Assembly: GCA_003151745.1 (NCBI GenBank)
Contig: PLYJ01000070.1
Location: 1-41,030, forward strand
Reading direction: 5' to 3'
Length of the DNA: 41,030 bases
Origin: Bacteroidota bacterium
GTDB lineage: Bacteria; Bacteroidota; Bacteroidia; AKYH767-A; 2013-40CM-41-45
Shown here: positions 24,321-24,658 of the stretch, one piece after another
How positions within the stretch are numbered: position 1 is the stretch's first letter
Layout: every line of letters begins with the position of its first letter
The notes under the pieces: generated by a model
Databases searched by the model: none
The model's input: the letters and a program-made list of their open reading frames with translations, nothing else
What the model was told of the DNA's origin: nothing
Made by a program: the position numbers and the translations under genes

Positions 24321-24658
24321 GTGACAATCGTATGTAAGTTAGGGACAAACGTACATACGTTTATGACAAACTTATGTAAGTTAGTGGCAATCGTACATAC
24401 GTTTGCGACAAACTTATATAACTCAGAGGCAATCGTACATACTTTTATGACAATCGTATGTAAGTTAGCGAGAATCGTAGATACGTTTGTGACAAACGTA
24501 TGTAACTCAGAGGCAATCGTACATAAGTTTGTGACAATGTTATGTAACTCAGCGACAATCGTACATACGTTTGTGACAAAGTTATATAACTCAGTGACAA
24601 ACGTACATAAGTCTGTGAAAAAGCTTGTTTTTGTGTTAAAAAAGGGCTTCTCAATTTG
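24321..24658 (+). repeat. array 3: 14 tandem 21-bp units in alternating classes plus tail gtgaaaaagcttgtttttgtgttaaaaaagggcttctcaattt
   Basis: gtgacaatcgtatgtaagtta / gggacaaacgtacatacgttt ... gtgacaaacgtacataagtct in unbroken 21-nt register from 24321. Confidence 0.95.

What the first reader, a model, noticed from the sequence alone, without database searches (positions are those of the whole stretch)
24321..24658. Array 3: 14 tandem 21-bp units whose alternating classes are inverted copies of each other, ending in a conserved tail
From 24321 the DNA tiles without a slip in 21-bp units. Two classes mostly alternate: (g)tgacaaacgtatgtaact/gtta and gaggcaatcgtacatacgttt. The core of one (CAAACGTATGTA) is the reverse complement of the core of the other (TACATACGTTTG). 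Junctions therefore form near-perfect dyads, e.g. 24478-24504 tagatacgtttg-tga-caaacgtatgta (11 of 12 bp). The array ends in gtgaaaaagcttgtttttgtgttaaaaaagggcttctcaattt. 21 bp is about two B-DNA turns, so identical sites would lie on one helix face. It also equals seven codons, and one frame reads as heptapeptides (...FVTNVCN SEAIVHK FVTMLCN SATIVHT...). The units directly abut, so it is not a CRISPR. I know of no named element with this organisation; that it is a protein-binding platform or a source of tandem RNA hairpins is inference.
Basis: partly seen in the sequence, partly recalled or inferred. Interest (0 to 1): 0.85.

Follow-up and report, generated by a model that had tools for sequence, protein, structure and literature searches.

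The report
Genome-wide 21-bp tandem hairpin arrays
The array is one of a couple of hundred non-coding arrays in this bacterium (about 800 in a distant relative) that all repeat every 21 bases and are built to fold into hairpins, although nearly every array uses a different sequence; no described DNA element that I could find behaves this way.

Summary
In detail: 14 abutting 21-bp units (24324-24617), no slip, alternating inverted classes, conserved tail. It is not a local curiosity. Scans of 0.6 Mb of the host genome and 0.46 Mb of a relative (G014, freshwater MAG Umea1_bin-1585) show that tandem arrays of at least five units have, with few exceptions, the same period, 21 bp. Estimated totals are about 230 and 820 arrays. 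Two congeners of G014 also carry them; ten sampled genomes of the host's own family and about 80 other Bacteroidota loci do not. Unit sequences are mostly unrelated between arrays. What is shared is the period, a mostly intergenic location and inverted-repeat units: about 7-bp arms with 3-5-nt unpaired centres. Arms often covary within units, and arrays fold better than column-permuted controls on both strands. Coding was tested and rejected. Paralogues show array-wide coherent rewriting: flanking sigma genes differ by 7-8%, arrays by 38%, with the same 14 units and alternation. Orthologous sites in related species often keep an array, usually with unrelated units. Best reading: structure-defined bidirectional hairpin satellites, kept palindromic and homogeneous by template switching or gene conversion, with the 21-bp phase fixed by constraint. 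The function is inferred, not shown.

The parts
24324..24617 (.). Array 3: 14 units of 21 bp, alternating TATGTA-type and TACATA-type inverted classes
24282..24323 (+). Leader: diverged unit 0 and T-rich stretch just after the sigma gene, conserved in the paralogous copies
24618..24642 (+). Conserved tail AAAAAGCTTGTTTTTGTGTTAAAAA
   Evidence: six copies genome-wide with 0-2 mismatches, 0 reversed controls
23701..24273 (+). ECF-type sigma factor gene, duplicated together with the array (intact in C262 and C58; only 3-prime remnants in C79, C241 and C203)
12056..12181 (.). Array 2: short paralogue of array 3 (six 21-bp rows used in the test) running into the same tail (12173-12197); no sigma gene
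5024..5317 (.). Array 1: 14 units of 21 bp with a different palindrome (AAGATACGTATCT); dyad p = 0.003; fold z -5.0 / -6.2; a tail-like sequence follows at about 5328
24318..24659 (+). Chance open frame through array 3; judged not a gene

Best explanation
Array 3 is one member of a genome-wide class of intergenic 21-bp tandem inverted-repeat (hairpin) arrays, found so far only in this genome and one genus of another family of the same order. Shown: exact 21-bp period in arrays with unrelated units; mostly intergenic placement; inverted arms with unpaired 3-5-nt centres; arm covariation in many arrays; coherent rewriting of a whole array without change of unit number. Inferred: the arrays work through structure, not sequence. 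Either strand can fold into a row of about 7-bp-stem hairpins, or the phased dyads line up on one face of the helix, giving a bidirectional element at boundaries between genes (a barrier or insulator for transcription, or a nucleoid anchor). Template switching between neighbouring inverted units, or gene conversion, keeps units palindromic and homogeneous while the sequence of the whole array drifts. Why the phase is 21 is not solved: two helical turns, or two 7-nt arms plus two 3.5-nt turns, both fit.
For: Period: in G014 112 of 140 TRF loci of period 9 or more are multiples of 21, in G000 47 of 92; arrays of at least five units essentially only at 21. Unrelated units: 84 of 100 G014 arrays (and 19 of 36 in G000) are at or near the shuffled level of similarity to any other array. 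Hairpins: dyad p <= 0.01 in 57% (G000) and 30% (G014) of arrays with a period-preserving null; fold z -2.9/-2.8 and -2.7/-2.6 on the two strands; within-unit arm coupling z > 2 in 58% of G014 arrays; alternating arrays of two unrelated hairpins with centres 21 bp apart. Loop geometry: in arrays with a strong dyad, pairing is about 0.2-0.4 at the centre and 0.6-0.8 in the arms in G014, although centres were chosen on arms only. Intergenic: 0 of 24 G000 and 9 of 64 G014 arrays inside an ORF; 28 of 34 G014 gaps of 450-700 bp hold one. Rewriting: sigma CDS 7.2-8.2% different, array 38.4% different, changes concentrated in the same columns of all units (variance 6.6 against null 1.6, maximum 3.0 in 5000). 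Four orthologous sites keep arrays, three with unrelated units and one with a shared half-unit. Template switching between inverted-repeat arms is known to homogenise them (PMC8604942, PMC8794818).
Against: No expression, binding or structure data. About half to 70% of G014 arrays are not individually significant for dyad symmetry in the strictest test. Part of the covariation comes from class alternation, and choosing the best centre inflates it somewhat. Diverged arrays show about 15 mismatches per indel, not far from a neutral expectation (my estimate), so selection on spacing rests mainly on the shared period, not on a lack of indels. The rewriting case assumes the sigma genes were not themselves homogenised by conversion. 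Array 3 alone folds only moderately better than its controls (z about -1.7). Since most long G014 gaps hold an array, sharing of sites between species is partly expected by chance.
Confidence: 0.55

Rival explanations
1. Selfish or neutral satellite DNA: a mutational process (replication slippage plus template switching, or an unknown 21-bp duplicating activity) makes arrays in unconstrained DNA. Hairpins and homogeneity are by-products and there is no host function.
For: Arrays fill long intergenic gaps regardless of gene orientation; near-complete sequence turnover at orthologous sites; truncated sigma genes lie next to further 21-bp arrays; indel to mismatch ratio near neutral; template switching explains palindromes (PMC8794818).
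Against: Ordinary slippage gives many periods; here 21 is nearly the only one. Some positions persist between species, and unit number persists between full-length paralogues.
Confidence: 0.3
2. Binding platform: dimeric proteins bind each dyad on the same helix face, as iterons or operators, and organise or silence DNA.
For: 21 bp equals two helical turns; dyad centres lie at multiples of 10.5 bp.
Against: Unit sequences are unrelated across some hundreds of arrays, so one sequence-specific protein cannot read them; HU-family (PF00216) copy number is ordinary; changes in one arm are often matched in the other.
Confidence: 0.1
3. Descendants of one mobile element (REP/BIME- or MITE-like, perhaps RAYT-mobilised) that spread by block duplication and then diverged.
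For: Array 3 spread with the sigma gene to several contigs; some G014 arrays share flanks of 75-98% identity; one copy lies beside a Y1 transposase gene.
Against: No shared termini across the class; most shared flanks are one-sided or are duplicated gene starts; Y1 transposases are not enriched in array genomes (G014 has one partial match); most units unrelated.
Confidence: 0.05

Closest known systems
REP / BIME intergenic palindromes (e.g. PMC3733652)
   Same: Dispersed, intergenic, imperfect palindromes of 20-40 bp; BIMEs alternate REP orientation (general knowledge)
   Different: REPs share one genome-wide sequence and are tied to RAYT transposases; here each array has its own sequence, the period is fixed at 21 and Y1 transposases are not enriched
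Borg tandem repeats (PMC9879509)
   Same: Genome-wide, lineage-specific arrays with unrelated units that arise independently and evolve fast
   Different: Borg units are perfect direct repeats of varied length, A-biased, about half inside ORFs; here the length is always 21, units are diverged and palindromic, and most arrays are intergenic
Bacterial minisatellites (VNTR)
   Same: Tandem head-to-tail units in intergenic DNA
   Different: Minisatellite periods differ between loci; here one period, inverted-repeat units, and stable unit number among the full-length paralogues
Plasmid iterons
   Same: Tandem sites of about 21 bp on one helix face, with inverted operator forms (general knowledge)
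   Different: Hundreds of chromosomal loci, no replication gene at the loci looked at, unrelated units

Membership tests
CRISPR array | Repeats separated by unique spacers | tested here: not met
   Units abut directly, lag-21 identity 0.63, no spacers
Heptad-repeat protein gene | Third-codon-position variation and conserved open frame | tested here: not met
   3-periodicity p <= 0.05 in 0% (G000) and 3% (G014) of arrays; open frames equal the dinucleotide-shuffle expectation; no homologues
REP/BIME | One shared palindromic sequence across the genome | tested here: not met
   84 of 100 G014 arrays without a related unit elsewhere in the sample
REP/BIME | Associated RAYT (Y1) transposase | tested here: not met
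   PF01797: 7 matches in G000, 1 partial in G014, 0-7 in array-free relatives
Rfam structured RNA | Match to a curated covariance model | tested here: not met
   No match at gathering threshold in the window
Minisatellite / satellite DNA | Tandemly repeated units with within-array homogenisation | tested here: met
   TRF and lag scans; coherent rewriting
Minisatellite / VNTR | Unit number varies between copies or strains | tested here: inconclusive
   14 units in each of the five full-length paralogues, but about 5 and 6 in two shorter copies; no strains available
Transposable element (MITE-like) | Common termini and target-site duplication | tested here: inconclusive
   Shared flanks in subsets only, no class-wide ends

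The most novel reading that the evidence does not exclude
A categorically new chromosomal element defined by structure and phase rather than sequence: a dedicated process or constraint creates and maintains 21-bp-phased hairpin arrays in nearly every long intergenic region of one lineage, rewriting their sequence array-wide while holding period, alternation and unit number, as a bidirectional boundary element.
Probability: 0.35. Interest if true: 0.92.

Novelty: new variant of a known kind. Interest (0 to 1): 0.77.

Why it matters
If true, it shows that DNA can be conserved by period and pairing alone, with almost no conserved sequence, on the scale of up to 7% of a bacterial genome. Ordinary homology searches cannot see such elements, which makes them easy to miss in other MAGs. 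It also gives a natural system for testing how template switching and gene conversion build and homogenise inverted repeats, and whether hairpin arrays act as transcription or nucleoid boundaries.

Tried and rejected
Coding: rejected; a first column-order null had suggested an excess of open frames, which vanished with a dinucleotide-preserving null. RAYT/REP mobilisation and an unusual number of HU proteins: no enrichment. Common flanking motif of all arrays: only small families, e.g. TTTTATAACGGGAA before a few G014 arrays; some shared flanks turned out to be duplicated gene starts. De novo seeding of an array from sigma-gene sequence in C79: suggestive 13 of 21 match at the border, but a related array stands in C241, so not claimed. 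G-U against A-C asymmetry to pick an RNA strand: uninformative because units are homogenised. Family clustering by single linkage chained low-information profiles and was replaced by consensus identity. Viral contigs: tail and unit patterns absent. Genome-contig search with the sigma protein: nothing. Literature searches found no description; only open-licence papers are held.

Full report
What is there. Array 3 consists of 14 units of exactly 21 bp at 24324-24617, preceded by a diverged unit and followed by the tail AAAAAGCTTGTTTTTGTGTTAAAAA. Identity is 0.63 at lag 21 and 0.82 at lag 42, at background elsewhere except multiples of 21, and the consensus is significantly palindromic (p = 0.002). 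The units are themselves imperfect palindromes, so both unit centres and junctions are dyads. Arrays 1 (5024-5317, p = 0.003) and 2 (about 12056-12181, p = 0.04) of the window are of the same kind.

Copies in the genome. DNA and tail searches find seven related arrays on six contigs, the window's two included. A gene for an ECF-type sigma factor (window 23701-24273; PF04542, PF08281) stands upstream of the copies in C67 (24 kb), C262 and C58, and a 3-prime remnant of it in C79, C241 and C203. In C58 a region holding a Y1 transposase gene lies between the sigma gene and the array.

A genome-wide class. A lag scan of sampled contigs shows that 21 and its multiples are nearly the only periods present: 36 arrays in 598 kb of G000 and 102 in 465 kb of G014, a different family of the same order. 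From contigs not chosen for arrays the estimates are about 230 and 820 arrays per genome. TRF, which assumes no period, agrees. G014 is Umea1_bin-1585, an uncultured Bacteroidetes bacterium; Umea1_bin-0439 is probably G017 (inference from contig number and relatedness). G017 and G021 carry 11 arrays each in about 80 kb. Ten other genomes of the window's family, one other genus of G014's family (G019) and 78 argS loci from other Bacteroidota show no true 21-bp arrays; the few hits there are 7-bp-based microsatellites or two to three copies. These are samples of 20-47 kb per genome.

Sequence is free, structure is not. Each array has its own unit; 84 of 100 G014 arrays are at or near the shuffled level of similarity to any other array. 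What recurs is inverted-repeat symmetry, coupling between the two arms of single units, alternating arrays in which two unrelated hairpins stand with centres 21 bp apart, and folding energies better than column-permuted controls on both strands. In arrays with a strong dyad, pairing is near background in the central 3-5 nt and at 0.6-0.8 in the arms, the geometry of a hairpin with about a 7-bp stem. Limits: not every array passes alone, and choosing the best centre inflates the coupling test somewhat.

Not coding. Column variability shows no codon periodicity, open frames match a dinucleotide-preserving null, and the ORF through array 3 has no homologue found in a search of 5.8 billion proteins. 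No Rfam family matches the window.

Where the arrays sit. None of 24 G000 arrays and 9 of 64 G014 arrays lie inside a longer ORF. They flank starts and stops alike, with an excess between convergent and divergent genes in G014 (29 of 55 placements against 105 of 353 gene pairs). In G014, 28 of 34 gaps of 450-700 bp hold one. ORF calling here is simple (longest non-overlapping frames).

How they evolve. The sigma genes of the window, C262 and C58 are nearly equidistant (6.1-8.2%). The arrays of C262, C241, C79 and C58 differ from each other by 4-9%, but the window array differs from all of them by 38%, with the same 14 units, no gap and the same alternation. The changes fall in the same columns of all units (variance 6.6; null mean 1.6, maximum 3.0 in 5000), including a compensated G-C to C-G pair in the TATGTA-type units. 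The whole array was thus rewritten coherently; conversion of the sigma genes is the main alternative. Between species, four orthologous intergenic sites keep 21-bp arrays, three with unrelated units and one sharing the half-unit GTTGGGGATG, while other orthologous sites have an array in one species only.

Mechanism. Template switching between inverted repeats is known to homogenise arms and to create compensated stems (PMC8604942, PMC8794818). Neighbouring units that are inverted copies of each other are ideal substrates, so the same process can keep units palindromic, homogenise the array and let its sequence drift as a block. This is inference. The fixed period is the unexplained core: either constraint (two helical turns; or two 7-nt arms with 3.5-nt turns), a dedicated duplicating activity, or common descent with extreme turnover. 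A role as a bidirectional boundary is suggested by location and strand symmetry only.

Known relatives. REP/BIME elements fail on shared sequence and on Y1 transposase enrichment; Borg repeats (PMC9879509) are the nearest in being genome-wide and independently arising, but have varied unit lengths, perfect units and frequent ORF location. Four literature searches found no description, within an open-licence library only.

Noticed in passing
window 26927-27367: 192-bp tandem repeats inside the 768-aa ORF, coding SBBP beta-propeller repeats of a protein with a type IX secretion sorting domain
   Followed up: partly
L054, L055, L056, L057, L053 (G000 contigs C262, C241, C58, C79, C203): A multicopy ECF-type sigma gene family with three 5-prime-truncated copies, each with a further, different 21-bp array just upstream of the remnant
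   Followed up: partly
L056:9941-10670 (G000 C58): A stretch with a Y1 (IS200-like) transposase gene separates the sigma gene from the array
   Followed up: no
flanks of arrays L118:10482, L129:15487 and L114:3563 (G014): Dispersed long palindrome AAGCATCCTGACAGGCAATCGCCCCTTCGCGATTTCCTGTCAGGATGCT, REP-like, next to several arrays
   Followed up: partly
L075:1-349 (G014 C82): A rare array with a 20-bp instead of a 21-bp period
   Followed up: no
G014 contig ends (L076, L079, L081, L114, L118, L119, L121, L122, L130): Many contigs of this MAG begin or end inside an array, so arrays seem to be a main cause of assembly breaks and are probably undercounted
   Followed up: no
L073:7377, L078:17317, L078:12372, L132:3493, L132:6536 (G014): Leader-like motif TTTTATAACGGGRA just outside a few arrays, always in the same orientation relative to the array
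   Followed up: partly
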